A stretch of 64,000 nucleotides of DNA from positions 1-64,000 of the forward strand of contig NC_090170.1 in NCBI RefSeq assembly GCF_017916325.1, in the 5' to 3' direction. The notes below the pieces were generated by a model. It was given only the letters and a program-made list of their open reading frames with translations. It searched no databases and had not been told where the DNA came from. The DNA is from Leishmania martiniquensis (taxonomy: Eukaryota; Euglenozoa; Kinetoplastea; Trypanosomatida; Trypanosomatidae). The position numbers and the translations under genes were made by a program. Shown one piece after another: positions 1-39,342 of the stretch (the first letter of the stretch is position 1; the number at the start of each line of letters is the position of its first letter).

Positions 1-3000
1 CCCTAACCCTAACTCCTAACTCCTAACCCTAACTCCCAACCCAACCCTATCTTAATTTTTACCGACTAAATTTACCCAATTTTTAAATTTTACTTCAAAT
101 TTTAATTTTAATTTTAAATTTTAATTTTAATTTTACCCCAATTTTAATTTCCAACAATTTTGCACCTTAATTTAATTTTAACTTTAATTTGACTGACTCT
201 GACTTGGACTTCTGACTTGACTTCTGACTTGACCACTTCGACTTCTGACTTTACTTTAAATTTTATTTCCAAATTTTAATTTAATTTAATCTTAAATTTA
301 ATTTAATTTTGTAATTTTAATTTTAATTTCTTAATTTTAATTTGAATTTAACACTTACCTAATTTAATTTCAATTCTAAATTTTAATTTAACTCTTAATC
401 TTACCAAATTTAACCCTAACCCTAACCCCAAATCTCAACCCTAACCCTAACCCTAATCCCACCCCAACCCTTGCAACCCTAACCCTAACCCTAACTCCTA
501 ACCCACCCTAACCCTTAACCCTAACCCAATTTTAACCCTTGAACCCTTAACCCTTAACCCTTAACCCTTAACCCTTAACCCTTAACCCTTAACCCTTAAC
601 CCTTGAACCCTTAACCCTTGACCCTTTAACCAACTTAACCCTTAACCCTTAACCCTTTAACCCTTAATCCCTTAACCCTTAACCCTTAACCCTTAACCCT
701 TAACCTCTTAAACCCTAAACTCCTTAACCCTTAACCCTGACCCTTAACCCTCAACCTCCTTAACCCTTAACCCTTAACCCTTAACTCCCAAACCCTTAAC
801 CCTTAACCTCTTAACCCTTAACCCTTAACCCTTAACCCTTAACCCTTAACCCTTAACCCTTAACCCTGACCCTTAACCCTTAACCCTTAACCCTCAACCC
901 TTAACCCTTAACCCTTAACCTCTAACCCTAACCCTTAACCCTTAACCCTTAACCCTTAACCCTTAACCCTTAACCCTTAACCCTTTAACCCTTAAACCCT
1001 TAACCCTTAACCCTTAACCCTTAACCCTTAACCCTTAACCCTTAACCCTTAACCCTTAACCCTTAACCCTTAACCCTTAACCCTTAACCCTTAACCCTAA
1101 CCCTTAACCCTTAACCCTTAACCTCTTAACCCTTAACCCTTAACCCTTAACCCTTAACCCTTAACCCTTAACCCTTAACCCTTAACCCTTAACCCTTAAC
1201 CCTTAACCCTTAACCCTTAACCCTTAACCCTTAACCCTTAACCCTTAACCCTTAACCCTTAACCCTTAACCCTTAACCCTTAACCCTTAACCCTTAACCC
1301 TTAACCCTTAACCCTTAACCCTTAACCCTTAACCCTTAACCCTTAACCCTTAACCCTTAACCCTTAACCCTTAACCCTTAACCCTTAACCCTTAACCCTT
1401 AACCCTTAACCCTTAACCCTTAACCCTAACTCCTTAACCCTTAACCCTTAACCCTTAACCCTTAACCCTTAACCCTTAACCCTTAACCCTTAACCTTAAC
1501 CCTTAACCCTTAACCCTTAACCCTTAACCCTTAACCCTTAACCCTTAACCCTTAACCCTTAACCCTTAACCCTTAAACCCTTAACCCTTAACCCTTAACC
1601 CTTAACCCTTAACCCTTAACCCTTAACCCTTAACCCTTAACCCTTAACCCTTAACCCTTAACCCTTAACCCTTAACCCTTAACCCTTAACCCTTAACCCT
1701 TAACCCTTAACCCTTAACCCTTAACCCTTAACCCTTAACCCTTAACCCTTAACCCTTAACCCTTAACCCTTAACCCTTAACCCTTAACCCTTAACCCTTA
1801 ACCCTTAACCCTTAACCCTTAACCCTTAACCCTTAACCCTTAACCCTTAACCCTTAACCCTTAACCCTTAACCCTTAACCCTTAACCCTTAACCCTTAAC
1901 CCTTAACCCTTAACCCTTAACCCTTAACCCTTAACCCTTAACCCTTAACCCTTAACCCTTAACCCTTAACCCTTAACCCTTAACCCTTAACCCTTAACCC
2001 TTAACCCTTAACCCTTAACCCTTAACCCTTAACCCTTAACCCTTAACCCTTAACCCCTTAACCCTTAACCCTTAAACCCTTAACCCTTAACCCTTAACCC
2101 TTAACCCTTAACCCTTAACCCTTAACCCTTAACCCTAACCCTTAACCCTTAACCCTTAACCCTTAACCCTTAACCCTTAACCCTTAACCCTTAACCCTTA
2201 ACCCTTAACCCTTAACCCTTAACCCTTAACCCTTAACCCTTAACCCTTAACCCTTAACCCTTAACCCTTAACCCTTAACCCTTAACCCTAACCCTTAACC
2301 CTTAACCCTTAACCCTTAACCCTTAACCCTTAACCCTTAACCCTTAACCCTTAACCCTTAACCCTTAACCCTTAACCCTTAACCCTTAACCCTTAACCCT
2401 TAACCCTTAACCCTTAACCCTTAACCCTAACCCTTAACCCTTAACCCTTAACCCTTAACCCTTAACCCTTAACCCTTAACCCTTAACCCTTAACCCTTAA
2501 CCCTTAACCCTTAACCCTTAACCCTTAACCCTTAACCCTTAACCCTTAACCCTTAACCCTAACCCTTAACCCTTAACCCTTAACCCTTAACCCTTAACCC
2601 TTAACCCTTAACCCTTAACCCTTAACCCTTAACCCTAACCCTTAACCCTTAACCCTAACCCTAACCCTTAACCCTTAACCCTTAACCCTTAACCCTTAAC
2701 CCTTAACCCTTAACCCTTAACCCTTAACCCTTAACCCTTAACCCTTAACCCTTAACCCTTAACCCTTAACCCTTAACCCTTAACCCTTAACCCTTAACCC
2801 TTAACCCTTAACCCTTAACCCTTAACCCTTAACCCTTAACCCTTAACCCTTAACCCTTAACCCTTAACCCTTAACCCTTAACCCTTAACCCTTAACCCTT
2901 AACCCTTAACCCTTAACCCTTAACCCTTAACCCTTAACCCTTAACCCTTAACCCTTAACCCTTAACCCTTAACCCTTAACCCTTAACCCTTAACCCTTAA

Positions 3001-6000
3001 CCCTTAACCCTTAACCCTTAACCCTTAACCCTTAACCCTTAACCCTTAACCCTTAACCCTTAACCCTTAACCCTTAACCCTTAACCCTTAACCCTTAACC
3101 CTTAACCCTTAACCCTTAACCCTTAACCCTTAACCCTTAACCCTTAACCCTTAACCCTTAACCCTTAACCCTTAACCCTTAACCCTTAACCCTTAACCCT
3201 TAACCCTTAACCCTTAACCTACCTTAACCCTTAACCCTTAACCCTTAACCCTTAACCCTTAACCCTTAACCCTTAACCCTTAACCCTTAACCCTTAACCC
3301 TTAACCCTTAACCCTTAACCCTTAACCCTTAACCCTTAACCCTTAACCCTTAACCCTTAACCCTTAACCCTTAACCCTTAACCCTTAACCCTTAACCCTT
3401 AACCCTTAACCCTTAACCCTTAACCCTTAACCCTTAACCCTTAACCCTTAACCCTTAACCCTTAACCCTTAACCCTTAACCCTTAACCCTTAACCCTTAA
3501 CCCTTAACCCTTAACCCTTAACCCTAACCCTTAACCCTTAACCCTTAACCCTTAACCCTTAACCCTTAACCCTTAACCCTAACCCTTAACCCTTAACCCT
3601 TAACCCTTAACCCTTAACCCTTAACCCTTAACCCTTAACCCTTAACCCTTAACCCTTAACCCTTAACCCTTAACCCTTAACCCTTAACCCTTAACCCTTA
3701 ACCCTTAACCCTTAACCCTTAACCCTTAACCCTTAACCCTTAACCCTTAACCCTTAACCCTTAACCCTTAACCCTTAACCCTTAACCCTTAACCCTTAAC
3801 CCTTAACCCTTAACCCTTAACCCTTAACCCTTAACCCTTAACCCTTAACCCTTAACCCTTAACCCTTAACCCTTAACCCTTAACCCTTAACCCTTAACCC
3901 TTAACCCTTAACCCTTAACCCTTAACCCTTAACCCTTAACCCTTAACCCTTAACCCTTAACCCTTAACCCTTAACCCTTAACCCTTAACCCTTAACCCTT
4001 AACCCTTAACCCTTAACCCTTAACCCTTAACCCTTAACCCTTAACCCTTAACCCTTAACCCTTAACCCTTAACCCTTAACCCTTAACCCTTAACCCTTAA
4101 CCCTTAACCCTTAACCCTTAACCCTTAACCCCAACTCCTTAACCCTTAACCCTTAACCCTTAACCCTTAACCCTTAACCCTTAACCCTTAACCCTTAACC
4201 CTTAACCCTTAACCCTTAACCCTTAACCCTTAACCCTTAACCCTTAACCCTTAACCCTTAACCCTTAACCCTTAACCCTTAACCCTTAACCCTTAACCCT
4301 TAACCCTTAACCCTTAACCCTTAACCCTTAACCCTTAACCCTTAACCCTTAACCCTTAACCCTTAACCCTTAACCCTTAACCCTTAACCCTTAACCCTTA
4401 ACCCTTAACCCTTAACCCTTAACCCTTAACCCTTAACCCTTAACCCTTAACCCTTAACCCTTAACCCTTAACCCTTAACCCTTAACCCTTAACCCTTAAC
4501 CCTTAACCCTTAACCCTTAACCCTTAACCCTTAACCCTTAACCCTTAACCCTTAACCCTTAACCCTTAACCCTTAACCCTTAACCCTTAACCCTTAACCC
4601 TTAACCCTTAACCCTTAACCCTTAACCCTTAACCCTTAACCCTTAACCCTTAACCCTTAACCCTTAACCCTTAACCCTTAACCCTTAACCCTTAACCCTT
4701 AACCCTTAACCCTTAACCCTTAACCCTTAACCCTTAACCCTTAACCCTTAACCCTTAACCCTTAACCCTTAACCCTTAACCCTTAACCCTTAACCCTTAA
4801 CCCTTAACCCTTAACCCTTAACCCTTAACCCTTAACCCTTAACCCTTAACCCTTAACCCTTAACCCTTAACCCTTAACCCTTAACCCTTAACCCTTAACC
4901 CTTAACCCTTAACCCTTAACCCTTAACCCTTAACCCTTAACCCTTAACCCTTAACCCTTAACCCTTAACCCTTAACCCTTAACCCTTAACCCTTAACCCT
5001 TAACCCTTAACCCTTAACCCTTAACCCTTAACCCTTAACCCTTAACCCTTAACCCTTAACCCTTAACCCTTAACCCCTAACCCTTAACCCTTAACCCTTA
5101 ACCCTTAACCCTTAACCCTTAACCCTTAACCCCTAACCCTAACCCTTAACCCTTAACCCTTAACCCTTAACCCTTAACCCTTAACCCTTAACCCTTAACC
5201 CTTAACCCTTAACCCTTAACCCTTAACCCTTAACCCTTAACCCTTAACCCTTAACCCTTAACCCTTAACCCTTAACCCTTAACCCTTAACCCTTAACCCT
5301 TAACCCTTAACCCTTAACCCTTAACCCTTAACCCTTAACCCTTAACCCTTAACCCTTAACCCTAACCCTTAACCCTTAACCCTTAACCCTTAACCCTTAA
5401 CCCTTAACCCTTAACCCTTAACCCTTAACCCTTAACCCTTAACCCTAACCCTAACCCTTAACCCTTAACCCTTAACCCTTAACCCTTAACCCTTAACCCT
5501 TAACCCTTAACCCTTAACCCTTAACCCTTAACCCTTAACCCTTAACCCTTAACCCTTAACCCTTAACCCTTAACCCTTAACCCTTAACCCTTAACCCTTA
5601 ACCCTTAACCCTTAACCCTTAACCCTTAACCCTTAACCCTTAACCCTTAACCCTTAACCCTTAACCCTTAACCCTTAACCCTTAACCCTTAACCCTTAAC
5701 CCTTAACCCTTAACCCTTAACCCTTAACCCTTAACCCTTAACCCTTAACCCTTAACCCTTAACCCTTAACCCTTAACCCTTAACCCTTAACCCTTAACCC
5801 TTAACCCTTAACCCTTAACCCTTAACCCTTAACCCTTAACCCTTAACCCTTAACCCTTAACCCTTAACCCTTAACCCTTAACCCTTAACCCTTAACCCTT
5901 AACCCTTAACCCTTAACCCTTAACCCTTAACCCTTAACCCTTAACCCTTAACCCTTAACCCTTAACCCTTAACCCTTAACCCTTAACCCTTAACCCTTAA

Positions 6001-9000
6001 CCCTTAACCCTTAACCCTTAACCCTTAACCCTTAACCCTTAACCCTTAACCCTTAACCCTTAACCCTTAACCCTTAACCCTTAACCCTTAACCCTTAACC
6101 CTTAACCCTTAACCCTTAACCCTTAACCCTTAACCCTTAACCCTTAACCCTTAACCCTTAACCCTTAACCCTTAACCCTTAACCCTTAACCCTTAACCCT
6201 TAACCCTTAACCCTTAACCCTTAACCCTTAACCCTAACCCTTAACCCTTAACCCTTAACCCTTAACCCTTAACCCTTAACCCTAACCTTAACCCTTAACC
6301 CTTAACCCTTAACCCTTAACCCTTAACCCTTAACCCTTAACCCTTAACCCTTAACCCTTAACCCTTAACCCTTAACCCTTAACCCTTAACCCTTAACCCT
6401 TAACCCTTAACCCTTAACCCTTAACCCTTAACCCTTAACCCTTAACCCTTAACCCTTAACCCTTAACCCTTAACCCTTAACCCTTAACCCTTAACCCTTA
6501 ACCCTTAACCCTTAACCCTTAACCCTTAACCCTTAACCCTTAACCCTTAACCCTTAACCCTTAACCCTTAACCCTTAACCCTTAACCCTTAACCCTTAAC
6601 CCTTAACCCTTAACCCTAACCCTAACCCTTAACCCTTAACCCTTAACCCTTAACCCTTAACCCTTAACCCTTAACCCTTAACCCTTAACCCTTAACCCTT
6701 AACCCTTAACCCTTAACCCTTAACCCTTAACCCTTAACCCTTAACCCTTAACCCTTAACCCTTAACCCTTAACCCTTAACCCTTAACCCTTAACCCTTAA
6801 CCCTTAACCCTTAACCCTTAACCCTTAACCCTTAACCCTTAACCCTTAACCCTTAACCCTTAACCCTTAACCCTTAACCCTTAACCCTTAACCCTTAACC
6901 CTTAACCCTTAACCCTTAACCCTTAACCCTTAACCCTTAACCCTTAACCCTTAACCCTAACCCTTAACCCTTAACCCTTAACCCTTAACCCTTAACCCTT
7001 AACCCTTAACCCTTAACCCTTAACCCTTAACCCTTAACCCTTAACCCTTAACCCTTAACCCTTAACCCTTAACCCTAACCCTTAACCCTTAACCCTTAAC
7101 CCTTAACCCTTAACCCTTAACCCTTAACCCTTAACCCTTAACCCTTAACCCTTAACCCTTAACCCTTAACCCTTAACCCTTAACCCTTAACCCTTAACCC
7201 TTAACCCTTAACCCTTAACCCTTAACCCTTAACCCTTAACCCTTAACCCTTAACCCTTAACCCTTAACCCTTAACCCTTAACCCTTAACCCTTAACCCTT
7301 AACCCTTAACCCTTAACCCTTAACCCTTAACCCTTAACCCTTAACCCTTAACCCTTAACCCTTAACCCTTAACCCTAACCCTTAACCCTTAACCCTTAAC
7401 CCTTAACCCTTAACCCTTAACCCTTAACCCTTAACCCTTAACCCTTAACCCTTAACCCTTAACCCTAACCCTTAACCCTTAACCCTTAACCCTTAACCCT
7501 TAACCCTTAACCCTTAACCCTTAACCCTTAACCCTTAACCCTTAACCCTTAACCCTTAACCCTTAACCCTTAACCCTTAACCCTTAACCCTTAACCCTTA
7601 ACCCTTAACCCTTAACCCTTAACCCTTAACCCTTAACCCTTAACCCTTAACCCTTAACCCTTAACCCTTAACCCTTAACCCTTAACCCTTAACCCTTAAC
7701 CCTTAACCCTTAACCCTTAACCCTTAACCCTTAACCCTTAACCCTTAACCCTTAACCCTTAACCCTTAACCCTTAACCCTTAACCCTTAACCCTTAACCC
7801 TTAACCCTTAACCCTTAACCCTTAACCCTTAACCCTTAACCCTTAACCCTTAACCCTTAACCCTTAACCCTTAACCCTTAACCCTTAACCCTTAACCCTT
7901 AACCCTTAACCCTTAACCCTTAACCCTTAACCCTTAACCCTTAACCCTAACCCTTAACCCTTAACCCTTAACCCTTAACCCTTAACCCTTAACCCTTAAC
8001 CCTTAACCCTAACCCTTAACCCTTAACCCTAACCCTTAACCCTTAACCCTTAACCCTTAACCCTTAACCCTTAACCCTTAACCCTTAACCCTTAACCCTT
8101 AACCCTTAACCCTTAACCCTTAACCCTTAACCCTTAACCCTAACCCTTAACCCTTAACCCTTAACCCTTAACCCTTAACTCCTTAACCCCTTAACCCTTA
8201 ACCCTTAACCCTTAACCCTTAACCCTTAACCCTTAACCCTTAACCCTTAACCCTTAACCCTTAACCCTTAACCCTTAACCCTTAACCCTTAACCCTTAAC
8301 CCTTAACCCTTAACCCTTAACCCTTAACCCTAACCCTTAACCCTTAACCCTTAACCCTTAACCCTTAACCCTTAACCCTTAACCCTTAACCCTTAACCCT
8401 TAACCCTTAACCCTTAACCCTTAACCCTTAACCCTTAACCCTTAACCCTTAACCCCAACCCTTAACCCTTAACCCTTAACCCTTAACCCTTAACCCTTAA
8501 CCCTTAACTCCTTAACCCTTAACCCCAACCCTTAACCCTTAACCCTTAACCCTTAACCCTTAACCCTTAACCCTTAACCCTTAACCCTTAACCCTTAACC
8601 CTTAACCCTTAACCCTAACCCTTAACCCTTAACCCTTAACCCCAACCCTTAACCCTTAACCCTTAACCCTTAACCCTTAACCCTTAACCCTTAACCCTTA
8701 ACCCTTAACCCTTAACCCCTTAACCCTTAACCCTTAACCCTTAACCCTTAACCCTTAACCCTTAACCCTTAACCCTTAACCCTTAACCCTTAACCCTTAA
8801 CCCTTAACCCTTAACCCTTAACCCTTAACCCTTAACCCTTAACCCTTAACCCTTAACCCTAACCCTTAACCCTTAACCCTTAACCCTTAACCCTTAACCC
8901 TTAACCCTTAACCCTTAACCCTTAACCCTTAACCCTTAACCCTTAACCCTTAACCCTTAACCCTTAACCCTTAACCCTTAACCCTTAACCCTTAACCCTT

Positions 9001-12000
9001 AACCCTTAACCCTTAACCCTTAACCCTTAACCCTTAACCCTTAACCCTTAACCCTAACCCTTAACCCTTAACCCTTAACCCTTAACCCTAACCCTTAACC
9101 CTAACCCTTAACCCTTAACCCTTAACCCTTAACCCTTAACCCTAACCCTTAACCCTTAACCCTTAACCCTTAACCCTTAACCCTTAACCCCAACCCTTAA
9201 CCCTTAACCCTTAACCCTTAACCTCTCAACCCTTAACCCTTAACCCTTAACCCTTAACCCTTAACCCTTAACCCTTAACCTTAACCCTTAACCCTTAACC
9301 CTTAACCCTTAACCCTTAACCCTTAACCCTTAACCCTTAACCCTTAACCCTTAACCCTTAACCCTTAACCCTTAACCCTTAACCCTTAACCCTTAACCCT
9401 TAACCCTTAACCCTTAACCCTTAACCCTTAACCCTTAACCCCTAACCCTTAACCCTTAACCCTTAACCCTTAACCCTAACCCTAACCCTTAACCCTTAAC
9501 CCTTAACCCTTAACCCTTAACCCTTAACCCTAACCCTTAACCCTTAACCCTTAACCCTTAACCCTTAACCCCTAACCCTAACCCTTAACCCTTAACCCTT
9601 AACCCTTAACCCTTAACCCTTAACCCTTAACCCTTAACCCTTAACCCTTAACCCTTAACCCTTAACCCTTAACCCTTAACCCTTAACCCTTAACCCTTAA
9701 CCCTTAACCCTTAACCCTTAACCCTTAACCCTTAACCCTTAACCCTTAACCCTTAACCCTTAACCCTTAACCCTTAACCCTTAACCCCAACCTTAACCCT
9801 TAACCCTTAACCCTTAACCCTAACCCTAACCCTTAACCCTAACCCTTAACCCTTAACCCTAACCCTTAACCCTTAACCCTTAACCCTTAACCCTTAACCC
9901 TTAACCCTTAACCCTAACCCTTAACCCTTAACCCTTAACCCTAACCCTTAACCCTTAACCCTTAACCCTTAACCCTTAACCCTTAACCCTTAACCCTTAA
10001 CCCTAACCCTTAACCCTTAACCCTTAACCCTTAACCCTTAACCCTTAACCCTTAACCCTTAACCCTAACCCTTAACCCTTAACCCTTAACCCTTAACCCT
10101 TAACCCTTAACCCTTAACCCTTAACCCTTAACCCTTAACCCTTAACCCCAACCCTAACCCTTAACCCTTAACCCTTAACCCTTAACCCTTAACCCTAACC
10201 CTTAACCCTCTAACCCTTAACCCTTAACCCTTAACCCTTAACCCTTAACCCTTAACCCTTAACCCTTAACCCTAACCCTAACCCTTAACCCTTAACCCTT
10301 AACCCTAACCCTTAACCCTTAACCCTTAACCCTTAACCCTTAACCCTTAACCCTAACCCTTAACCCTTAACCCTTAACCCTTAACCCTAACCCTTAACCC
10401 TTAACCCTAACCCTTAACCCTTAACCCCTAACCCTTAACCCTTAACCCTCAACCCTTAACCCTAACCCTTAACCCTTAACCCCTAACCCTTAACCCTTAA
10501 CCCTTAACCCTTAACCCTTAACCCTTAACCCCTAACCCTTAACCCTTAACCCTTAACCCTTAACCCTTAACCCTTAACCCTTAACCCTTAACCCTAACCC
10601 TTAACCCTAACCCTTAACCCTTAACCCTTAACCCTTAACCCTTAACCCTAACCCTTAACCCTTAACCCTTAACCCCCTAACCCTTAACCCTTAACCCTTA
10701 ACCCTTAACCCCTAACCCTTAACCCTTAACCCTTAACCCTTAACCCTTAACCCTTAACCCTTAACCCTTAACCCTTAACCCTTAACCCTTAACCCTTAAC
10801 CCTTAACCCTTAACCCTTAACCCTTAACCCTTAACCCTTAACCCTTAACCCTTAACCCTTAACCCTTAACCCTTAACCCTTAACCCTTAACCCTTAACCC
10901 TTAACCCTTAACCCTTAACCCTTAACCCTTAACCCTTAACCCTTAACCCTAACCCTTAACCCTTAACCCTTAACCCTTAACCCTTAACCCTTAACCCTTA
11001 ACCCTTAACCCTTAACCCTTAACCCTTAACCCTTAACCCTTAACCCTTAACCCTTAACCCTTAACCCTTAACCCTTAACCCTTAACCCTTAACCCTTAAC
11101 CCTTAACCCTTAACCCTTAACCCTTAACCCTTAACCCTTAACCCTTAACCCTTAACCCTTAACCCTTAACCCTAACCCTTAACCCTTAACCCTTAACCCT
11201 TAACCCTTAACCCTTAACCCTTAACCCTTAACCCTAACCCTTAACCCTTAACCCTTAACCCTTAACCCTTAACCCTTAACCCTTAACCCTTAACCCTTAA
11301 CCCTTAACCCTTAACCCTTAACCCTTAACCCTTAACCCTTAACCCTTAACCCTTAACCCTTAACCCTTAACCCTTAACCCTTAACCCTTAACCCTTAACC
11401 CTTAACCCTTAACCCTTAACCCTTAACCCTAACCCTTAACCCTAACCCTTAACCCTTAACCCTTAACCCTTAACCCTTAACCCTTAACCCTTAACCCTTA
11501 ACCCTTAACCCTTAACCCTTAACCCTTAACCCTTAACCCTTAACCCTTAACCCTTAACCCTTAACCCTTAACCCTTAACCCTTAACCCTTAACCCTTAAC
11601 CCTTAACCCTTAACCCTTAACCCTTAACCCTAACCCTTAACCCTTAACCCTTAACCCTTAACCCTTAACCCTTAACCCTTAACCCTTAACCCTTAACCCT
11701 TAACCCTTAACCCTTAACCCTTAACCCTTAACCCTTAACCCTTAACCCTTAACCCTTAACCCTTAACCCTTAACCCTAACCCTTAACCCTTAACCCTTAA
11801 CCCTTAACCCTTAACCCTTAACCCTTAACCCTTAACCCTAACCCTTAACCCTTAACCCTTAACCCTAACCCTAACCCTTAACCCTTAACCCTAACCCTTA
11901 ACCCTTAACCCTTAACCCTTAACCCTTAACTCCTTAACCCTTAACCCTTAACCCTTAACCCTTAACCCTTAACCCTTAACCCTTAACCCTTAACCCTTAA

Positions 12001-15000
12001 CCCTTAACCCTTAACCCTTAACCCTTAACCCTTAACCCTTAACCCTTAACCCTTAACCCTTAACCCTTAACCCTTAACCCTTAACCCTTAACCCTTAACC
12101 CTTAACCCTTAACCCTTAACCCTTAACCCTTAACCCTTAACCCTTAACCCTTAACCCTTAACCCTTAACCCTTAACCCTTAACCCTTAACCTTAACCCTT
12201 AACCCTTAACCCTTAACCCTTAACCCTTAACCCTTAACCCTTAACCCTTAACCCTAACCCTTAACCCTTAACCCTTAACCCTTAACCCTTAACCCTTAAC
12301 CCTTAACCCTTAACCCTTAACCCTTAACCCTTAACCCTTAACCCTTAACCCTTAACCCTTAACCCTTAACCCTTAACCCTTAACCCTTAACCCTTAACCC
12401 TTAACCCTTAACCCTTAACCCTTAACCCTTAACCCTTAACCCTTAACCCTAACCCTTAACCCTTAACCCTTAACCCTTAACCCTTAACCCTTAACCCTTA
12501 ACCCTTAACCCTTAACCCTTAACCCTTAACCCTTAACCCTTAACCCTTAACCCTTAACCCTTAACCCTTAACCCTTAACCCTTAACCCTTAACCCTTAAC
12601 CCTTAACCCTTAACCCTTAACCCTTAACCCTTAACCCTTAACCCTTAACCCTTAACCCTTAACCCTTAACCCTTAACCCTAACCCTTAACCCTTAACCCT
12701 TAACCCTTAACCCTTAACCCTTAACCCTTAACCCTTAACCCTTAACCCTTAACCCTTAACCCTTAACCCTTAACCCTTAACCCTTAACCCTTAACCCTTA
12801 ACCCTTAACCCTTAACCCTTAACCCTTAACCCTTAACCCTTAACCCTTAACCCTTAACCCTTAACCCTTAACCCTTAACCCTTAACCCTTAACCCTTAAC
12901 CCTTAACCCTTAACCCTTAACCCTTAACCCTTAACCCTTAACCCTTAACCCTTAACCTCTTAACCCTTAACCCTTAACCCTTAACCCTTAACCCTTAACC
13001 CTTAACCCTTAACCCTTAACCCTTAACCCTTAACCCTTAACCCTTAACCCTTAACCCTTAACCCTTAACCCTTAACCCTTAACCCTTAACCCTTAACCCT
13101 TAACCCTTAACCCTTAACCCTTAACCCTTAACCCTTAACCCTTAACCCTTAACCCTTAACCCTTAACCCCTTAACCCTTAACCCTTAACCCTTAACCCTT
13201 AACCCTTAACCCTTAACCCTTAACCCTTAACCCTTAACCCTAACCCTTAACCCTTAACCCTTAACCCTTAACCCTTAACCCTTAACCCTAACCCTTAACC
13301 CTTAACCCTTAACCCTTAACCCTTAACCCTTAACCCTTAACCCTTAACCCTTAACCCTTAACCCTTAACCCTTAACCCTTAACCCTTAACCCTTAACCCT
13401 TAACCCTTAACCCTTAACCCTTAACCCTTAACCCTTAACCCTTAACCCTTAACCCTTAACCCTTAACCCTTAACCCTTAACCCTTAACCCTTAACCCTTA
13501 ACCCTTAACCCTTAACCCTTAACCCTTAACCCTTAACCCTTAACCCTTAACCCTTAACCCTTAACCCTTAACCCTTAACCCTTAACCCTTAACCCTTAAC
13601 CCTTAACCCTTAACCCTTAACCCTTAACCCTTAACCCTTAACCCTTAACCCTTAACCCTTAACCCTTAACCCTTAACCCTTAACCCTTAACCCTTAACCC
13701 CTAACCCTTAACCCTTAACCCTTAACCCCTAACCCTTAACCCTTAACCCTTAACCCTTAACCCTTAACCCTTAACCCTTAACCCTTAACCCTTAACCCTT
13801 AACCCTTAACCCTTAACCCTAACCCTTAACCCTTAACCCCTAACCCTTAACCCTTAACCCTTAACCCTTAACCCTTAACCCTTAACCCTTAACCCTTAAC
13901 CCTTAACCCTTAACCCTTAACCCTTAACCCTTAACCCTTAACCCTAACCCTAACCCTTAACCCTTAACCCTTAACCCTTAACCCTTAACCCTTAACCCTT
14001 AACCCTTAACCCTTAACCCTTAACCCTTAACCCTTAACCCTTAACCCTTAACCCTTAACCCTTAACCCTTAACCCTTAACCCTTAACCCTTAACCCTTAA
14101 CCCTTAACCCTTAACCCTTAACCCTTAACCCTTAACCCTTAACCCTTAACCCTTAACCCTTAACCCTTAACCCTTAACCCTTAACCCTTAACCCTTAACC
14201 CTAACCCTTAACCCTTAACCCTTAACCCTTAACCCTTAACCCTTAACCCTTAACCCTTAACCCTTAACCCTTAACCCTTAACCCTTAACCCTTAACCCTT
14301 AACCCTTAACCCTTAACCCCAACCCTTAACCCTTAACCCTTAACCCTTAACCCTTAACCCTTAACCCTAACCCTTAACCCTTAACCCTTAACCCTTAACC
14401 CTTAACCCTTAACCCTTAACCCTTAACCCTTAACCCTTAACCCTTAACCCTTAACCCTTAACCCTTAACCCTTAACCCTTAACCCTTAACCCTTAACCCT
14501 TAACCCTTAACCCTTAACCCTTAACCCTTAACCCTTAACCCTTAACCCTTAACCCTTAACCCTTAACCCTAACCCTTAACCCTTAACCCTTAACCCTTAA
14601 CCCTTAACCCTTAACCCTTAACCCTTAACCCTTAACCCTTAACCCTTAACCCTTAACCCTTAACCCTTAACCCTTAACCCTTAACCCTTAACCCTTAACC
14701 CTTAACCCTTAACCCTTAACCCTTAACCCTTAACCCTTAACCCTTAACCCTTAACCCTTAACCCTTAACCCTTAACCCTTAACCCTTAACCCTTAACCCT
14801 TAACCCTTAACCCTTAACCCTTAACCCTTAACCCTTAACCCTTAACCCTTAACCCTTAACCCTTAACCCTTAACCCTTAACCCTTAACCCTTAACCCTTA
14901 ACCCTTAACCCTTAACCCTTAACCCTTAACCCTTAACCCTTAACCCTTAACCCTTAACCCTTAACCCTTAACCCTTAACCCTTAACCCTTAACCCTTAAC

Positions 15001-15226
15001 CCTTAACCCTTAACCCTTAACCCTTAACCCTTAACCCTTAACCCTTAACCCTTAACCCTTAACCCTTAACCCTTAACCCTTAACCCTTAACCCTTAACCC
15101 TTAACCCTTAACCCTTAACCCTTAACCCTTAACCCTTAACCCTTAACCCTTAACCCTTAACCCTTAACCCTTAACCCTTAACCCTTAACCCTTAACCCTT
15201 AACCCTTAACCCTTAACCCTTAACCC
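1..15226. repeat. Telomeric repeat array, chromosome left end
   Basis: C-rich strand of a telomere, read 5' to 3' from the chromosome end. The first ~50 bases and 415-540 hold CCCTAA-like hexamers with many errors. From ~540 to 15226 the dominant unit is the heptamer CCCTTAA (TTAAGGG on the other strand), about two thousand copies, with scattered hexamer CCCTAA units and rare variants (CCCCAA, CCTCTTAA, CTCCTTAA). Irregular units are denser at about 8.0-11.9 kb. The array stops abruptly at 15226. Leishmania telomeres are known to be TTAGGG hexamers, so the telomeric identity is secure but the heptamer form may be a sequencing artefact. Confidence 0.93.
51..420. repeat. AT-rich, degenerate telomere tip
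   Basis: A short interruption inside the telomeric array, dominated by irregular TTTTAA/AATTTT units, with a patch around 188-250 made of GACTT/GACTTCT-like units. It is flanked on both sides by CCCTAA repeats. TTTTAA is the complement of TTAAAA, a known nanopore miscall of TTAGGG, and CTTCTT-like strings are another known telomere miscall. I read this as badly called telomere rather than a separate element. Confidence 0.55.
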
Positions 15227-16305
15227 TGTTTGTAGGGGGAAGAGGTGGTGGGGGTCAAATGAAGCAGAGGAAAGAGAGAGAGTATGCAGTGGGCGCCACT
15301 TCCTGTGTCTTCTGAGAATCTGCTGAAAAATGGTGGCGGGGCAGTGGTAGTCGAGTTGGTGATAAAAGGCGCCCTATGAATGCGCTGCAGGAATCAGCGT
15401 GGGAGACTAGGGAGAGTAGAGTCTCTCGCGTGGTAAGGAGTTCCCCGTACGAGAAGCAAAGAAAGAGCAGCCCAAAGTACTAGAGACCTTCTTTTGGGGA
15501 GCTCCAGGGAGGATTCAGGGCCGAAAAGTCGCTCTGTGGCTGGTGTGTAGTGGAATCAGCTCGCGCCCGTAGAGTCAGATGGATGGGAGATAAGGGGATG
15601 AGGGCGGTGAGAGTCTTTGTTGAAAGAGATGGAGAAGGTGCATTCTGAGCCACGCTGGTTGTTGAAACGCACCACAGGTCAGGCAGCATGTCAAACCGTG
15701 TGGGAAAATGGCATACACCAAGGGTAGTGCCACTCGTCTTTTCTCAGAGCCATGCAGATGGGTTCACTCTGAAGGTGAGCGTCACATCAAGGCGATACTC
15801 ACTCTGTTCTTGCTCCGAAAAGGCTTTGTTGCTGACTACCCTCCCCAGAGCCGAGGGATAGGTGCACCATAGAATGCACCTCAGAGCACCAGCGATGAAG
15901 AAAATGGAGTAAGAGAAGTTTGCCAAAAAGAAGGGAAAACTGTGGGCGCCATCGATGAGCGAATGGGGAAGCGAGGGCCGAGTGAAAAAAACGGGAGTCA
16001 GTCGAGCAGCTCGATAGAGCAAAGCCAAGGAATCACGTGTTCCGCTTGACTGAACCAAAACACACGTCGGTCGTTGATTGTGCTGGTGAGGAAGCAAATG
16101 ATCAAGAGAGGTAGCAGACGCTCGAAAGAGAACGGGTCTCAGATATTCTGTAGAGGCGAAAAACAAAGGGAACGCATCACGGAGGAGCGCACGCGTTCTC
16201 TTCACAGGAACCGCTGAAGGCGAGGGCCGCATCACGACACCTGCGTGTGGACCTCGCACAGCAAAAAGCGAGCACAGTCGTGTAGAAGGCCGCCTGCGGG
16301 GGGAG
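15227..16305. other. Subtelomeric unique region without a clear gene
   Basis: Unique sequence between the terminal repeats and the first tandem unit. It starts with a purine-rich, G-rich stretch (15232-15280) and has no internal repeat that I can see. Open frames here (for example minus 15744-16367) run across the repeat-unit edge, resemble no family and are probably chance. Leishmania telomere-associated conserved blocks would be expected here, but I could not recognise them with confidence. Confidence 0.5.
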
Positions 16306-16327
16306 GGGTGGGGGGTCAGGAGGCGTG

Positions 16328-16338
16328 TAGGGTTAGGG
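16328..16338 (+). repeat. Interstitial telomeric motif, unit 1 edge
   Basis: TAGGGTTAGGG, almost two perfect TTAGGG hexamers, sits within about 25 bases of the tandem-unit edge. The same string recurs at 22637-22647 and 28942-28952. It is in the canonical hexamer form, unlike the heptamer of the terminal array. Short matches can occur by chance, but the position at every junction is notable. Confidence 0.6.
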
Positions 16339-16727
16339 AGCAGACGCAGAGAGGGGACACTACACAAGCCCCCTTACTGCATCACAAAGGAGAGAGGGGC
16401 GGGGGTAACACTCATGGAATGGGACGGATCACACTGTTTGTGGAGTGCATGCCAATGAGTGGCACGGCCTCCACCGAAAGGCGCCCGCCACCTCGAAGAC
16501 CAAAGAAGAAAGACAATTAAAGAGTTTTCGAGGACGCGTTTCACAATACCACCGAACGGAAACGATGAAAAGAGCATTAGAAGAACAGACATGAAGAGGC
16601 GGCGACCTCAACACACTCATCTTCACCGCCTCTTGAAATCGCCGTGGCAGCGACGCAGGGCCTTAGAGCTCAAAAAGAGGACGCACCGCACGCGCATAAA
16701 GCCGCGGCTTCAGCAATCAAGAAAAGG

Positions 16728-19061
16728 CTACCTCTTACCAGATTCCATGATGCACTCGGCGATGTGCTCTTTGCCGCGCTTGTACCGAACATCGTACACC
16801 GCAACATCGTCCCTCTCGGCTACGATGTACGAGGGGCGTGGGTCGCCTCGTGCCCATTCTACATCCAGTACGCTTCCCAAGCCCACCATCGACTTGGGTA
16901 CCTGCGACGCTACCCACTCCCCATGTTCTTGGTTGCATTCTCCTCAATGGTGTTCACGTCGACCCCCTGCTGTACCAACTGCTGCGCCTCCTCTGCCACC
17001 TTGTACTCGTTCTTGAAGAAGTAGTGGACATAGTAGGGAATCGCTGGCATAGCAAAGTGAGTCAGCACTGAGATCCACGTGAGATTGAAAGGTATTGGTC
17101 GTAGAATCTGATGCGCCCGGGATCGCTTGTCGGCGATGTAGCATACACGTCGCCTTGGGCACAGCCGCCGCACGTCTTCAAGGTGGTCGCGCACCTGTTT
17201 CCCGACAAGCTTATCCTCAAACTGCATAATTAAGCCGAGGTATTGGTAGTCGAGGGTCGAGTTGTACGGCCTTGTCAACAACTTCAGCAGAAGAGCGTTG
17301 CTGCCGTCAAATGGATTCAGAGCAGCCAGGACGAGGCGACGATCGAGGACGTAGCCCACGCCGTTGCCGAATACGATCCCACTGGTGTAAAGCCACCAGA
17401 TTCGATAAAGGCATTCCTGTGTAGTATCGATGCCGCGCGTCGTTGGTATGAATCCCGTCGTGCGGGATAGTCGCCGTCAAGTTGCGCGGTTTGTCCCATC
17501 CACCCCGAACGTAGCGTAGGTCGCTGAGGTACTGTGGCACCTTCAGGTACATGTCGTCGTCGCCCTTCATCAGGTACGGCACGTCAGGAAACGCAGTGTA
17601 GGCGTAGTTCAGCCATAGGGCGACTTTTTGGCTCATGCCCACTTCTGTCGGCACACCCCACGAATTAGGCATGCCCATCTTTTTTCTCGTAGTCGCCTTT
17701 CGGTCTGTCAAAAAGTCGACCCATAACGCATCGCGATGGCGCAACGCCTCCTGCCACAGGGCAGTGGAGGCGTGGCACACGTACTGGGCCGCTGATGTGA
17801 AGGTGGGCGTCACGGGCAGTGAGAGCGCAGAGGAGAGAGTCGCAAGCGGCAGAGTCCCGTTACGAACGGCTTCGGGAGTCACCACAGAGGTCGTCACACC
17901 AGCGCACGGCGACTTCCACACAGCGTCGTTGCCGTCGGGAATGCTGCGCCACCCATCCTGCAGCACCACACGGCGCTGCGCATATGTGGGTACGCTCGCA
18001 GTGCTTCTGAGCTCCGCCGCCAGCCGCTGTGCGCTCGCTGCGGCGTACTCGCTCATCGTTGGTGCCAGCTGCGTCAAGTTCACTGCATTGCCCGTCGAGT
18101 CTTCAGAAGGGCGCTCTGCAGCAGCATACACGTAGAGCACCAGGAGCGCGCCGTTGAAGTTGTTCTCGCTGCGCGCCACCTCACGATAGGTCAGCCACGT
18201 CGCACGCTGCGCATCTCGTAGCGGGTAGCGCTTCGGCTGGTCCGTCGAGGGTATGCCCATGACAATTAAGTGGTGCGGCAGTGGTTCCGTCCTGCTCTTC
18301 CACTGCACGTCGATATTGAAGCTGCGTTGGAGCGCATACGACTGCTGTACCCACGGCCACAGCGCCAGTTCCGCTGCAGCATCCACATCGTCCGTCACAC
18401 TTGCCATCGCAAACAGCATGGGCCCAATAAGACCCAGCGGTGCAGATGTCGTGGCAAAGACGGGATGCTCCGTGGCCATCTGATTTGGCTGCCTCTCCGT
18501 CACGGCCTCTGAGCCCCCAGCGGCCGCAGCACGGTATGTTACACTATCGAAGCACATCGTGCAGCTCTCGTCGATGACGCGCAGCGTCCATGAAGGCAGC
18601 TGGTCACAGTCCAGGCGAATCCTGTCGCCTACCTCAGTCAAAGCCAAGCGACGCTGCTCGAGCGTTAGCCGCTCTATCGCATCCTCGTGCCGCACCAGCA
18701 CAGAGAAGGTCTCATTACGTTGAGGCCGAATCCATTCCTTCACGGAAGGCACAAATGATGAGTTAAGTTGCAGCATATCACTGGTCCCGAAGGAGTTGAT
18801 AGAATGGTAAATGGTGAGTGTGAAAGCAATAAGAACGACTAGTGCTGTCAGGTGGCAACGCCGAGTGCGCGGAGGCGCACCTAGAGAAGCGAATCGACAC
18901 AGATGCCCGCATAGCCGGAGCAGGGAAGTCCGTGCTACTCTACTCTGTAAGCCATTGGGTTTCGCGGGTGTGCCTGTTTTTTTCCCTTGTACTCGGCAGC
19001 CGAGTTTGGTCCAGCTCCGCCTGGCTGCGCGCAGAAGAACGGCAGTCGACGTTGCTGGCAC
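16728..19061 (-). pseudogene. Phosphoglycan beta-1,3-galactosyltransferase, copy 1, frameshifted
   Basis: Same gene as the intact copy at 29342-31675, but the frame is broken twice. Near 17452 there is one extra base relative to copies 2 and 3 (TATGAATCCC against TATAATCCC in copy 2), so the frame leaves the true sequence about 48 residues after the DDD motif. Near 16917 a C run is one base shorter, which shifts the frame again 63 codons before the normal stop. The N-terminal signal anchor, the acidic DDD motif and most of the lumenal domain are still readable. The family acts in the Golgi and adds beta-1,3-galactose to lipophosphoglycan repeats. The second indel is in a homopolymer, so this may be an intact gene with consensus errors; I call it a pseudogene only as assembled. 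Confidence 0.7.
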
Positions 19062-21047
19062 CGCTGCTCACCGCGGAACCTCTCTGAGAGACCAGGCATG
19101 TATGGGAGGGTGCGGAGCCGAGGGCCTCCCCAGGTGTAACCGCGTCGTCAATGTCTCGCTCGTTGCGCATGTGGATTCGACCGCTTCAGTTTGAGGCGAA
19201 GGCTGGCGGAAGGCACCCAAGATCTGCAGGAGAGCGGCACGACACAAAGCACCGGTCACCGTGTAAAGGAGAGCAGTAGGATAAGCACACGTGAGGCCCT
19301 GGGTAGATGCAGGCGAAAGGGGAGTGGATATGGAGAGGGGCGCAAGGAGGCACAAGGCAGCGGTTGAAAAGCGTTGTGAGTTGCTAGGCGCGATCGTCAA
19401 GGGTGCGCCAGCGAGCCGATGGCCAGTGCGCTACTTGCATGGATGCGCGTCTATCGAGAAGCCCGCGGGGTGGCGTCGGGAGGAAGGAGAGCACAGTTAG
19501 ATGGCGGAAGGTCTCACAAAGTTGTCAAGTCGAAGTGACAGTGAAAGATGGCGCTGCATCACGCTACATCGGTGCGCATGGGGAGGCAAGCTTGCCTCTT
19601 CAGTCGTGTAGGCAGCTGCTGTACGCACGAGGTCGCAGGGTTGCCTCTCCGAGAGAAGCGCTGGCCCGTCTCCCCTTCGCGAGGGCGCGCGCGGCAGCGC
19701 TCAGGCCGCTGGCTTCGTGGATGCGTATGGCCGTGCGATGGAAAGTCGTCATTGTCATGCATAGGGAGGTAAGCCTGCACATGCTCAAGTCGTAGGCGTG
19801 CCAGCAGTATCGCTGCCGCCTCGACTAGGCAAGAAGAAGCAGAGTCAGAGACACATCCACAGAGGCGGAAGAAATCGAGTTGAGGATGCAATCGCAGAGG
19901 GCGACACGCTTCGGCGGGTGCGATGCTCTAGGTGGGTCACGTCGAACAAGGGCACGAAAGGCCTCCCCTTTACCAGAAACTACGTGGCATGCGGTGGTCA
20001 GCCAGTGCAATCCAGCGGGAAAAAGAGCAGCACCACAGCACCCTATGCCTTCCAACGAAGCAGAAGGCTCGGTAGGTCGGACCGAAGGACCAAGAAGCAA
20101 AGAGCCCGGAGTAGCGAGGCGAGCAACACGGCGCTGTGGAACCTCTCATCGGCGACTAGACGCAGTGGGGAGGGAGAGCAGGACATCAGGGTCTCGATCA
20201 AATGCATCGCACAATCAGCACTTACACGTGCAGGTGCCGGACTGGGCGTAGAACAAGGAAGCTTACGTACTGAAATGGAAAGGGTGAACGCGCCACACGC
20301 GCATGAGGTCGGAGAAGCGTACACGGCAGTCGCGCGTGTCCTTTGCTACCACTTTGCCACCTTCCCTCTCTGCGCATGCTCCGTTGTTTGAGCAGCTGCA
20401 CCATTGTCTCCCATTAGCTCTTCTCTAGGTGAAGCGCGCCCTTCGCTTCCTGCCATATGCCTCATGAAGCGGGAGGGCGGATGCACGCCAGACGGCAGCG
20501 CACGACCTCGCGCGCTCTCTGCATCTGGGCACCCCCGTCTGTGAGTTCGCGTGTCATGCATGAAAAAAAAAGCGGGCCGGAGGAGACAAAAAATGCAAAA
20601 AAAAAAAACGGAGGGTGAGGCACGAGACTGCGGCATAGCAAATGAGCGAGCAGGCGGGATGAGGAGAAGTAACGGCCACGGAGGCGGCTCAGCATACCGC
20701 GTGGCCAGTCTCAGTACCTGCAGCGCTTACACGGCGAAGTTGCACTGAGCCTTTCTGCCCCGTCGGGTGCCGAAAGCGCGCGTCAAGCGCGGGCGAACGC
20801 TCTCTCCCTCTCTCTAGATGGGCTCGGGTTCGGGCACCGCTTTTGTTTTGTTTCTTTTCTCCTATCGCCAGCCGCCAGAGGATGGGCTGAGGGGGTCAGC
20901 ACATGGCCCGTGAAGCGGAAGTCGTGGAGAGGAAGCGATTGGCGAAGGGGGAGAGCCCTAGGCAAGACAGAGTAGAAGAAAACAGTTTGGACAGAAGAAA
21001 AAAATGTGTATCTATGAATGGACGGCAAGCCGTACACGCGCGACTGA
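19062..21047. other. Intergenic region, unit 1 (H4 3' side to galactosyltransferase 5' side)
   Basis: About 2 kb with no recognisable gene. Frames of 60-197 codons on both strands look like none I know and change length between copies. It holds A runs at 20563-20571 and 20600-20607 (with neighbours) whose lengths differ between units, a purine-rich stretch, and a degenerate direct repeat at 19573-19622 and 19756-19806. It should contain the H4 3' UTR and polyadenylation sites and the galactosyltransferase trans-splice site. Confidence 0.6.
19573..19806. repeat. Degenerate ~45-bp direct repeat pair
   Basis: Two imperfect copies share the pattern CATRGGGAGGYAAGC, then CAGTCGTGTAGGC or CAAGTCGTAGGC, then CAGC, and lie about 180 bases apart. 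The pair recurs in units 2 and 3 (near 25882-26115 and 32187-32419), because the whole unit is duplicated. It could be a decayed retroposon fragment; I cannot assign a family. Confidence 0.35.
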
Positions 21048-21350
21048 TCACGCGTAGCCGTACAGGATGTGGCCGTGCTTGCGCAGCGCGTTCACGACGT
21101 CCGACGCCGTCACAGTCTTCTTGCGCGCGTACTCGGTGTAGGCCGTGCTGCAGCGCACAATGTCCTCCACGTAGGCCTTCAGCACGCGGCGCACCTCATC
21201 GTAGATCTCGCTCGAGATGCGCTTCACGCCGCCGCGGCGCGCGAGGCGTCGGATGGAGCCGCGCGTGATGCCGCGGATGTTGTCGCGCAGCACCTTCTTC
21301 TGTCGCTTCTGGTGGCCCTTGGCATCAGTGGAGCGCTTACCCTTGGCCAT
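21048..21350 (-). CDS. H4: Histone H4, copy 1
   Basis: 100-residue core histone that pairs with H3 in the nucleosome. The protein is [14 protein letters not shown]..., with the conserved [24 protein letters not shown] block (about residues 23-46), the histone-fold helices, and the [19 protein letters not shown] to YGYA end. The usual N-terminal GRGKGGKGLGKGGAKRHRK tail is replaced by the divergent trypanosomatid tail. The frame is open 71 codons further upstream, but the ATG at 21350 begins the histone and gives the normal length. A candidate spliced-leader acceptor lies at 21419-21420. The protein is identical in all three copies. Confidence 0.97.
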
Positions 21351-21418
21351 GGTTGGATATGTGGGGAATGTGTGTGTGTGTAAGAGGAAATCGATGTGAT
21401 GGTGGGCTGCGTAGCGAT

Positions 21419-21420
21419 CT
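21419..21420 (-). promoter_or_regulatory. Candidate spliced-leader acceptor for H4 copy 1
   Basis: On the minus strand a long pyrimidine-rich tract (about 21421-21460) ends in AG here, 69 bases upstream of the H4 ATG. This is the expected form of a trypanosomatid trans-splice site. The exact AG is inferred by eye. Confidence 0.5.
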
Positions 21421-22636
21421 GGGAGTAGGGGCATGAGAACAAAGGAAGAAGCGGAAAGGAAATCCACTGCCACTAAGACGTTGTTGCATCGAGGAGGGAT
21501 AAAATTGGCATGCGCGTCTACAAACACTTGTGTTCGGGCGCGTATTGTCGGCAGAGGCACCATTTATTTCGAGCCGAACCCAGGAAGCAATCTGTGAGAA
21601 TGTACTAAGCTCTCTTTTTGACAAGGGAGGTAACGAGGTGCTCTTGTAAGAAACGTACGCATGCAAGCACCTCTTAAGCATGTCATCCTTTTTGCTTTAG
21701 AAGGTCCGATGCCGAGCGACTGCTCTCACGGTACGCGATCTCATTCTGAGAGCGTGTAGGAGTGATATGGTGCTACGTGGTTTCATCGCTGCGATAATAT
21801 GAGAAGCGCGTCGCCATTCTCCCTCTCGGCGGACTCTTTTTATGTAGTCACGGAAGATGTGTAGGTAGTAGTTTAGAGCATTGGCAACTTAATTCCTCAA
21901 GCTAGGGGATGGGTCAAGACACGAAGCGGATAAGGCGAGGCTGCTTGGATGCAGTAAGAGCGGAAGCCCAACAAAGTGTGTTGATGGCAGGCAGGATTTT
22001 CCATGCGAAGGGCGAGATGTCAGCTGCTGAGCATGCTTTGTTGCTCATTTGCAAAGCGAAGAAGGGCATGAACCGCACAACAGCCCGTCAGGTTGCGGGG
22101 CGCTCTGGTAGGTCACCGACAGCCTCCGAGTCGGTGCTCATGAAAATGACAAGGAGGACCGATATTGCGAAAACGGTGCAAAGCAGTCATGACTGTCACT
22201 TTCCTTCTTCCGTATCGTGGCAATAAACGCAGCTCACGTCTACCATGGTAAAGCATCAGAAGACGGCGCGGGCGCTTTATTGGTCGCTTGTGCTGCGATT
22301 CAGCGAGCGCACGTGACAAGATACAAACTGTGATGCTTTCCTTAGCGTGGCGGGGCGGCACACAGTTGGCGGCCACCTTCATGGTGAAATAAGCAAACGA
22401 GAGGACGCCTATGAGGGGAGGATAATGTTCCTTGCTCAACGTCTCGAGTGCCGAGGAGGACCCATAGCTGTGTTGCTCCGTTCATTGCACGCTACGGCAA
22501 TGCGGCTGCTTTACTCAGAGGTAATGCACAAAATGCAAAAAGCCGAAACATCGTGATATGAAAAAGAATGCGAAAAAAGAGCATGATGCAAGGGACAGAT
22601 TTGTGAAAGGGGGTAGGGTGGGGGTCAGGAGGCGTG

Positions 22637-22647
22637 TAGGGTTAGGG
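22637..22647 (+). repeat. Interstitial telomeric motif, unit 1/2 junction
   Basis: Second copy of TAGGGTTAGGG, where the H4 5' flank of unit 1 meets the galactosyltransferase 3' flank of unit 2. Confidence 0.6.
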
Positions 22648-23034
22648 AGCAGACGCAGAGAGGGGACACTACACAAGCCCCTTACTGCATCACAAAGGAG
22701 AGAGGGGCGGGGGTAACACTCATGGAATGGGACGGATCACACTGTTTGTGGAGTGCATGCCAATGAGTGGCACGGCCTCCACCGAAAGGCGCCCGCCACC
22801 TCGAAGACCAAAGAAGAAAGACAATTAAAGAGTTTTCGAGGACGCGTTTCACAATACCACCGAACGGAAACGATGAAAAGAGCATTAGAAGAACAGACAT
22901 GAAGAGGCGGCGACCTCAACACACTCATCTTCACCGCCTCTTGAAATCGCCGTGGCAGCGACGCAGGGCCTTAGAGCTCAAAAGAGGACGCACCGCACGC
23001 GCATAAAGCCGCGGCTTCAGCAATCAAGAAAAGG

Positions 23035-27351: not shown

Positions 27352-27654
27352 TCACGCGTAGCCGTACAGGATGTGGCCGTGCTTGCGCAGCGCGTTCACG
27401 ACGTCCGACGCCGTCACAGTCTTCTTGCGCGCGTACTCGGTGTAGGCCGTGCTGCAGCGCACAATGTCCTCCACGTAGGCCTTCAGCACGCGGCGCACCT
27501 CATCGTAGATCTCGCTCGAGATGCGCTTCACGCCGCCGCGGCGCGCGAGGCGTCGGATGGAGCCGCGCGTGATGCCGCGGATGTTGTCGCGCAGCACCTT
27601 CTTCTGTCGCTTCTGGTGGCCCTTGGCATCAGTGGAGCGCTTACCCTTGGCCAT
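27352..27654 (-). CDS. H4: Histone H4, copy 2
   Basis: Same 100-residue protein as copy 1, with the same 5' flank. The start is the ATG at 27654, by family length and by identity with copy 1; the frame is open further upstream but that part is not histone. It lies upstream of galactosyltransferase copy 2 on the minus strand, about 1.9 kb away, so both should be on the same primary transcript. Confidence 0.97.
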
Positions 27655-27722
27655 GGTTGGATATGTGGGGAATGTGTGTGTGTGTAAGAGGAAATCGATG
27701 TGATGGTGGGCTGCGTAGCGAT

Positions 27723-33965: not shown

Positions 33966-33968
33966 GGT

Positions 33969-39334: not shown

Positions 39335-39342
39335 GGTGCAGA

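What the first reader, a model, noticed from the sequence alone, without database searches (positions are those of the whole stretch)
540..15226. Terminal array is built of the heptamer CCCTTAA, not the expected CCCTAA
Seen: about 14.7 kb in which nearly every unit has an extra T, with only scattered hexamers. Known: Leishmania telomeres are TTAGGG, and the modified base J (glucosylated hydroxymethyluracil, replacing T) is concentrated in their telomeres. Inference: either a true change (altered telomerase RNA template or an expanded variant satellite), or a systematic base-calling error. A modified T in CCCTAA lengthening the nanopore signal could yield CCCTTAA, so the heptamer may be a fingerprint of base J. 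The canonical hexamers at the tip and in the interior (16328, 22637, 28942) argue for the artefact.
Basis: partly seen in the sequence, partly recalled or inferred. Interest (0 to 1): 0.75.

Follow-up and report, generated by a model that had tools for sequence, protein, structure and literature searches.

The report
Telomere repeat misread by nanopore sequencing
The 14.7-kb array of an odd seven-base repeat at this Leishmania-like chromosome end is most likely an ordinary TTAGGG telomere that nanopore base-calling misread, not a new kind of telomere.

Summary
The array is real in the assembly: of 2,128 units scored between 540 and 15228, 1,964 read CCCTTAA and 81 CCCTAA. Best explanation: a nanopore repeat-calling error of a normal telomere. 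(1) 11 of 21 contig ends examined hold tandem TTTTAA, the published nanopore error TTAAAA on the other strand, and a nanopore synthetic tail stands at four contig ends. (2) The probable telomerase-RNA template on chromosome 25 is the canonical ACCCTAACCCTA. (3) Behind one common flank, arrays read as pure hexamer (C2L, C12R, C20R) or mostly heptamer (C6R, C10R, C28R). (4) The array's irregular units show no duplicated pattern. (5) 6-mer to 7-mer miscalls are published for human telomere-like repeats. Against: CCCTTAA/TTAAGGG is not named in that paper's main text; three contig ends are heptameric to the last base held; non-LCTAS junctions are heptameric at 11 of 13. Base J as the specific cause is possible but untested: two Tet/JBP-family genes are present. 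A real TTAAGGG array is not excluded, because no reads were available.

The parts
1..539 (+). Noisy contig tip: CCCTAA hexamers mixed with TTTTAA-like and TGACTTGACTTC-like stretches; resembles nanopore telomere error sequence
   Evidence: comparison with PMC9414165
540..15227 (+). Terminal array written as CCCTTAA (TTAAGGG on the other strand); interpreted as a CCCTAA telomere with a systematic extra T. 1,964 of 2,128 units heptamer, 81 hexamer
9000..10999 (+). Stretch of the array with the most non-heptamer units (23 and 25 in the two 1-kb bins, against 1-15 in the other bins counted from 1100 on)
15224..15245 (+). Array/subtelomere junction CCCT|GTTTGTAGGGGGAAGAGG; the flank is shared with C8 right, C21 left and C36 left
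16300..35200 (+). Three copies of a subtelomeric unit of about 6.3 kb; each holds one TTAGGG (16333, 22642, 28947) and a long ORF. Units 1 and 2 nearly identical, unit 3 diverged

Best explanation
The chromosome end carries an ordinary TTAGGG/CCCTAA telomere made by a telomerase with the canonical template. In the nanopore data behind this assembly, the current signal of the repeat was decoded into a repeat of different period, CCCTTAA. The consensus step kept that call over most of the array at this end and at many others, while many contig tips, probably covered by few reads, still show hexamers, pentamers and other error repeats. Shown here: error repeats at tips, the nanopore tail, a hexameric template at the expected place, and discordant calls behind one common flank. 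Inferred: that the heptamer arrays are hexamers in the DNA, that tips are thinly covered, and that read strand or coverage decides which call wins at a given end.
For: Tan et al. 2022 (PMC9414165; parts 1 and 2 of 6 of the text plus passages) report TTAGGG called as TTAAAA and CCCTAA called as CTTCTT or CCCTGG in nanopore but not PacBio HiFi reads, and state that 6-mers and 7-mers can be miscalled as one another. Here tandem TTTTAA (two or more in a row, first 1,500 bases) occurs at 11 of 21 contig ends examined. At C20L the tip is the pentamer CCTGG, 19 in a row, one base shorter than the published CCCTGG; CTTCTT and CCCTGG themselves occur only as single copies; TTGAC and GCAACC runs are not in the published list. 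At C20L and C21L the call drifts inward through 5-base CCTAA and 6-base CCCTAA to 7-base CCCTTAA. A synthetic sequence lies at four contig ends and once inside C6; the reverse complement of the 27-base tail of an 'ONT' primer in a MinION paper (PMC4374364, passage) is complete in C8L and C22R, partial or with errors in the other three. At C22R and C26L it joins telomere-type sequence directly. The only match to BACCCTAACCCTAB in the unmasked genome is C25:332649, near the published L. major template at LmjF.25:333352. At 10 of 10 LCTAS-type junctions found, the innermost unit is a hexamer although the pattern allowed either. Behind that flank C2L, C12R and C20R have 70/0, 136/0 and 97/0 hexamer/heptamer, while C10R (part read) and C28R have 13/202 and 8/157. 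Irregular units of the window's array show no duplicated spacing pattern (1 repeated triplet, shuffled mean 2.15).
Against: No reads were available, so the step from heptamer to hexamer DNA is inferred. Neither CCCTTAA nor TTAAGGG occurs in the main text of PMC9414165. Heptamer stretches can be very clean (122 in a row at C8R), and the all-or-none behaviour between ends is not explained from first principles. C8R, C28R and C29R are heptameric up to the contig end (27, 28 and 28 heptamers against 1, 0 and 0 hexamers in the last 200 bases); their lengths are multiples of 2,500, so the true tip may be missing. Non-LCTAS junctions are heptameric at 11 of 13 against 5 of 10 for LCTAS-type ones (Fisher P = 0.17 on my recount), and the four GTTTGTAGG junctions are all heptameric; a real subtelomere-linked difference would look like this too. 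The published motif near the telomerase-RNA template (CYGTCA) was not found on the strand searched in the 1,101 bases fetched.
Confidence: 0.72

Rival explanations
1. The heptamer is a base-calling artefact caused specifically by base J: the modified T of CCCTAA (and the second T of GGGTTA) alters the signal so that an extra base is called. Hexamer and heptamer ends would then report J level or the strand that dominates the consensus.
For: The assembly has two open Tet_JBP-family genes, on C9 and C14 (their naming as JBP1 and JBP2 is recalled). About 98% of Leishmania J is telomeric according to PMC8621916 (passages). The extra base falls at the only T of CCCTAA. The heptamer is not named in the main text of the study of J-free organisms.
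Against: 6-mer to 7-mer miscalls such as TTGGGG to TTGGGGG are reported in human DNA. One fungal nanopore study searched reads for TTAGGG and TTAAGGG (PMC12550465, passages), although it does not say why. Pure-hexamer arrays at C2L, C12R and C20R would be expected to carry J too. J positions within the repeat are recalled, not read here.
Confidence: 0.2
2. The array is truly TTAAGGG: a variant telomere block, made by an earlier or alternative template or amplified by recombination, in places capped by hexamers.
For: Long clean heptamer runs reach the unique sequence at many ends. Four heptamer ends keep 1-4 hexamers next to LCTAS-type sequence (C4L, C6R, C10R, C28R), as an old-inside, new-outside history would. 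Heptamers prevail at non-LCTAS junctions (11 of 13). Three contig ends are heptameric to the last base held. A heptamer-type 10-mer outside regular arrays has 29 hits against 11 for the reversed control.
Against: Hexameric template at the expected telomerase-RNA place. In the outermost 200 bases, 17 of 21 contig ends have hexamers or error repeats outnumbering heptamers. No duplicated variant pattern as rolling-circle or unequal exchange might leave. Arrays behind the LCTAS-type flank differ completely between ends. A published nanopore error repeat occurs in the same arrays.
Confidence: 0.07
3. Assembler or polisher artefact: individual reads carry mixed errors and the consensus algorithm makes a clean heptamer from them.
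For: Heptamer stretches are clean and many tips noisy. Subtelomeric units 1 and 2 differ by 6 substitutions and 11 indels over about 6.3 kb; 9 of the 11 are homopolymer run-length differences.
Against: C20L and C21L show heptamers arising gradually in noisy tip sequence, which suggests that the raw call already contains them.
Confidence: 0.01

Closest known systems
Nanopore telomere repeat-calling errors (Tan et al. 2022, PMC9414165)
   Same: Telomere sequence miscalled into other repeats, TTAAAA among them; period changes 6 to 7 and 6 to 5 documented for telomere-like repeats; error and true repeats occur together
   Different: CCCTTAA/TTAAGGG is not named in that paper's main text; here it dominates an assembled end over 14.7 kb
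TTAAGGG telomere variant repeats in human telomeres (PMC11100205, passages)
   Same: Same heptamer, listed there among rare variations
   Different: There interspersed variant units between telomere and subtelomere; here nearly pure long arrays
Leishmania telomeres with LCTAS (PMC8621916, passages)
   Same: A conserved flank (ATGTCG type) at 10 junctions with CCCTAA next to it; telomerase-RNA template on chromosome 25
   Different: This window's end has another flank (GTTTGTAGGGGG) and reads as heptamers. Calling the ATGTCG flank LCTAS is my assignment, not from a sequence match

Membership tests
Nanopore telomere repeat-calling error | Published error repeats present in the same terminal arrays | tested here: met
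   Tandem TTTTAA (TTAAAA) at 11 of 21 ends; CCCTGG and CTTCTT only as single copies
Nanopore telomere repeat-calling error | Sequence data are from nanopore | tested here: met
   Synthetic tail at four contig ends and one interior place; tail identified through PMC4374364
Nanopore telomere repeat-calling error | The exact motif is a reported error | tested here: inconclusive
   6-to-7 miscalls reported, this motif not named in the main text; supplements not opened
Nanopore telomere repeat-calling error | Absent from HiFi or short reads of the same sample | not testable with these tools
   No reads held
Nanopore telomere repeat-calling error | Error depends on the read strand | not testable with these tools
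   Only the consensus is held
Genuine variant telomere | Telomerase-RNA template encodes the variant | tested here: not met
   Template locus reads TACCCTAACCCTAG; locus assigned by template and position only, CYGTCA motif not found
Genuine variant telomere | Newest (distal) repeats are of the variant type | tested here: inconclusive
   17 of 21 contig ends not heptamer-dominated in the outer 200 bases, this window's end among them; C17L has hexamers outermost then heptamers; C8R, C28R, C29R heptameric to contig ends that may be cut
Recombination-amplified satellite | Repeated pattern of variant units | tested here: not met
   1 repeated gap triplet, shuffled mean 2.15, p 0.88, in the window's array
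Base J-dependent miscall | Base J synthesis genes present | tested here: met
   Two Tet_JBP matches over cut-off, open frames of 1,119 and 815 aa
Base J-dependent miscall | Heptamer lost in J-free DNA | not testable with these tools
   No amplified reads held

The most novel reading that the evidence does not exclude
Part of the chromosome ends of this Leishmania-like genome truly carry long TTAAGGG arrays, inherited with particular subtelomeres (such as the GTTTGTAGGGGG flank) and maintained by recombination, while telomerase adds TTAGGG.
Probability: 0.07. Interest if true: 0.75.

Novelty: not a real feature. Interest (0 to 1): 0.2.

Why it matters
The heptamer covers thousands of units in this assembly and could be taken for a new telomere type or used as a telomere-finding motif. 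If base J were shown to cause it, repeat-calling errors in existing nanopore data would become a cheap readout of J at single chromosome ends; that remains untested.

Tried and rejected
Healed chromosome breaks: I first read the non-LCTAS junctions as newly healed ends made by a changed telomerase. Rejected because four of them share one flank (C8R, C21L, C35L, C36L) and two non-LCTAS ends are hexameric (C15L, C29L).

Heptameric template elsewhere: pattern BNCCCTTAACCC gave 29 hits against 11 for the reversed control, scattered over chromosomes, two of them inside this window's array. I did not examine the other 27 one by one, so a second template is not formally excluded.

First template pattern with optional gaps was badly designed and matched telomeres; replaced.

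Paper searches on base J with nanopore (6 of 6 listed, 10 of 12 listed) and on TTAAGGG or CCCTTAA (20 of 2,064 listed, 8 of 8, 20 of 108, 1 of 1): in these listings and the passages I opened I saw no paper that describes CCCTTAA as a nanopore or base J artefact. Only this library was searched, and no supplements.

A k-mer current model comparison of CCCTAA with CCCTTAA could not be done; I had no model table.

For this I moved 0.01 from the best explanation to the real-array rival.

Full report
Observation. The window is the left end of contig C35 in a 32.3-Mb, 41-contig assembly. Two genes of the Tet/JBP family and a telomerase-RNA-like template at the Leishmania chromosome-25 position make it a Leishmania-like genome; the species was not determined. 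In the stretch 540-15228, 1,964 of 2,128 units are CCCTTAA and 81 are CCCTAA. This is far beyond chance, and the coordinates are right to within a base or two at the inner end (array ends at 15227).

Data type. The first 540 bases are noisy and hold TTTTAA-like and TGACTTGACTTC-like repeats. I fetched 39 other left contig starts (C1-C34 and C36-C40, 5 kb or the whole contig; C41 not fetched). Of these, 14 were wholly masked and 6 half masked. I also read nine right ends in whole or part (C4, C6, C8, C10, C12, C20, C28, C29, C40), short stretches of the C22 and C23 right ends, and junctions at C21 and C36 left. For 21 contig ends with telomere-type sequence I tallied the outermost 200 bases. 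Tandem TTTTAA was found in the first 1,500 bases of 11 of the 21; it is the reverse complement of TTAAAA, the nanopore error for TTAGGG named by Tan et al. (PMC9414165; parts 1 and 2 of 6 and passages read). The other two published errors, CTTCTT and CCCTGG, occur only as single copies, but C20L begins with 19 CCTGG pentamers in a row; TTGAC and GCAACC runs (C6L, C21L) are further odd repeats. A synthetic sequence stands at the tips of C8L, C26L, C22R and C23R and once inside C6. The reverse complement of the 27-base tail of a primer named 'ONT' in a MinION paper (PMC4374364, passage) is complete in C8L and C22R and partial or erroneous in the other three. At C22R and C26L it joins telomere-type sequence directly. 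The assembly therefore rests on nanopore reads, and tips look like little-corrected read sequence; the latter is inference.

What the telomerase would make. The pattern BACCCTAACCCTAB has one match in the unmasked genome, C25:332649. The published putative Leishmania telomerase RNA has the template ACCCTAACCCTA at LmjF.25:333352 and between 277 and 330 kb in four other species (PMC4229120, passages). A template of this form makes TTAGGG. Caveats: a 12-mer can occur by chance, identity rests on position, and the CYGTCA motif of the template boundary element was not found in 1,101 bases around it. A heptamer-type 10-mer has 29 hits against 11 for the reversed control, not examined singly.

Ends compared. 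All 10 LCTAS-type junctions found have a hexamer as the innermost unit. Behind this flank, C2L, C12R and C20R are pure hexamer (70/0, 136/0, 97/0 hexamer/heptamer), C9L and C13L mostly hexamer (62/10, 100/5), C4L mixed (66/65, with heptamers next to the innermost three units), and C6R, C10R and C28R mostly heptamer (50/160, 13/202, 8/157; C10R read in part); 121 bases of C4R gave 3/4. At other flanks heptamers reach the junction at C6L, C8R, C17L, C20L, C21L, C23L, C26L, C29R, C34L, C35L and C36L, while C15L and C29L are hexameric. By the innermost 84 bases that is 11 of 13 heptameric against 5 of 10, P = 0.17 on my recount. Dropped from the recount: C12L (masked at the junction), C40R (the unit run ended short of its junction) and the C21L tip row (same end counted at its junction). 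The script's first count, which kept the last two, gave 13 of 15 and P = 0.075. This imbalance is the main observation that a real, subtelomere-linked heptamer would explain well.

Tips. In the outermost 200 bases, 17 of 21 contig ends have hexamers or error repeats outnumbering heptamers, this window's among them. C17L has ten hexamers outermost, then heptamers. C8R, C28R and C29R are heptameric to the contig end (27/1, 28/0 and 28/0 heptamer/hexamer); their lengths are multiples of 2,500, so the true tip may not be held.

Within the array. Non-heptamer units cluster (28 adjacent pairs against 8.7 expected) and are densest at 9-11 kb, but their spacing shows no duplicated pattern (1 repeated triplet against a shuffled mean of 2.15). 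I read this as noise or changing coverage rather than amplification of a mixed seed. At C20L and C21L the unit changes inward from odd repeats through 5-base CCTAA and 6-base CCCTAA to 7-base CCCTTAA. Elsewhere in the window, units 1 and 2 of the 6.3-kb subtelomeric repeat differ by 6 substitutions and 11 indels, 9 of them homopolymer run lengths, as in imperfectly polished nanopore consensus.

Mechanism. Tan et al. attribute the errors to similar current profiles of different repeats and state that 6-mers and 7-mers can be miscalled for each other, for example TTGGGG as TTGGGGG in human DNA. CCCTAA decoded as CCCTTAA would fit this class, though that motif is not named in their main text. Base J could be the reason for this particular motif: Leishmania J is about 98% telomeric (PMC8621916, passages) and the extra base falls at the T of CCCTAA. 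Against J being required: the human 6-to-7 example, pure-hexamer ends in the same genome, and a fungal nanopore study that searched for TTAGGG and TTAAGGG (PMC12550465, passages; it gives no reason). The evidence does not decide.

Verdict. The array is most likely a base-calling artefact of an ordinary telomere (0.72, base J not needed; 0.2 that J is the specific cause). A real heptamer array is unlikely (0.07) but not excluded without reads.

Noticed in passing
C6:249292-249313 (L091): Part of the synthetic nanopore tail sits inside chromosome-sized contig C6, so a library artefact seems to be built into the assembly there.
   Followed up: partly
C9 left (L039:1 to about 3200): About 3 kb of non-telomeric sequence lies outside the noisy telomere tip, which looks like a misjoin.
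   Followed up: no
window 16300-35200: Tandem subtelomeric unit of about 6.3 kb, three copies; the longest ORF is shorter in copies 1 and 3 than in copy 2 (489 and 682 against 814 aa). The copy-2 protein matches no Pfam family at E 0.001.
   Followed up: partly
window 15224-15245 and C8R, C21L, C36L: Four chromosome ends share the flank GTTTGTAGGGGGAAGA next to the array, a second telomere-associated sequence besides the ATGTCG type.
   Followed up: partly
window 37835-44511: Next genes inward match pyruvate kinase, a phosphoinositide phospholipase C and a protein with transketolase-type domains by Pfam.
   Followed up: no
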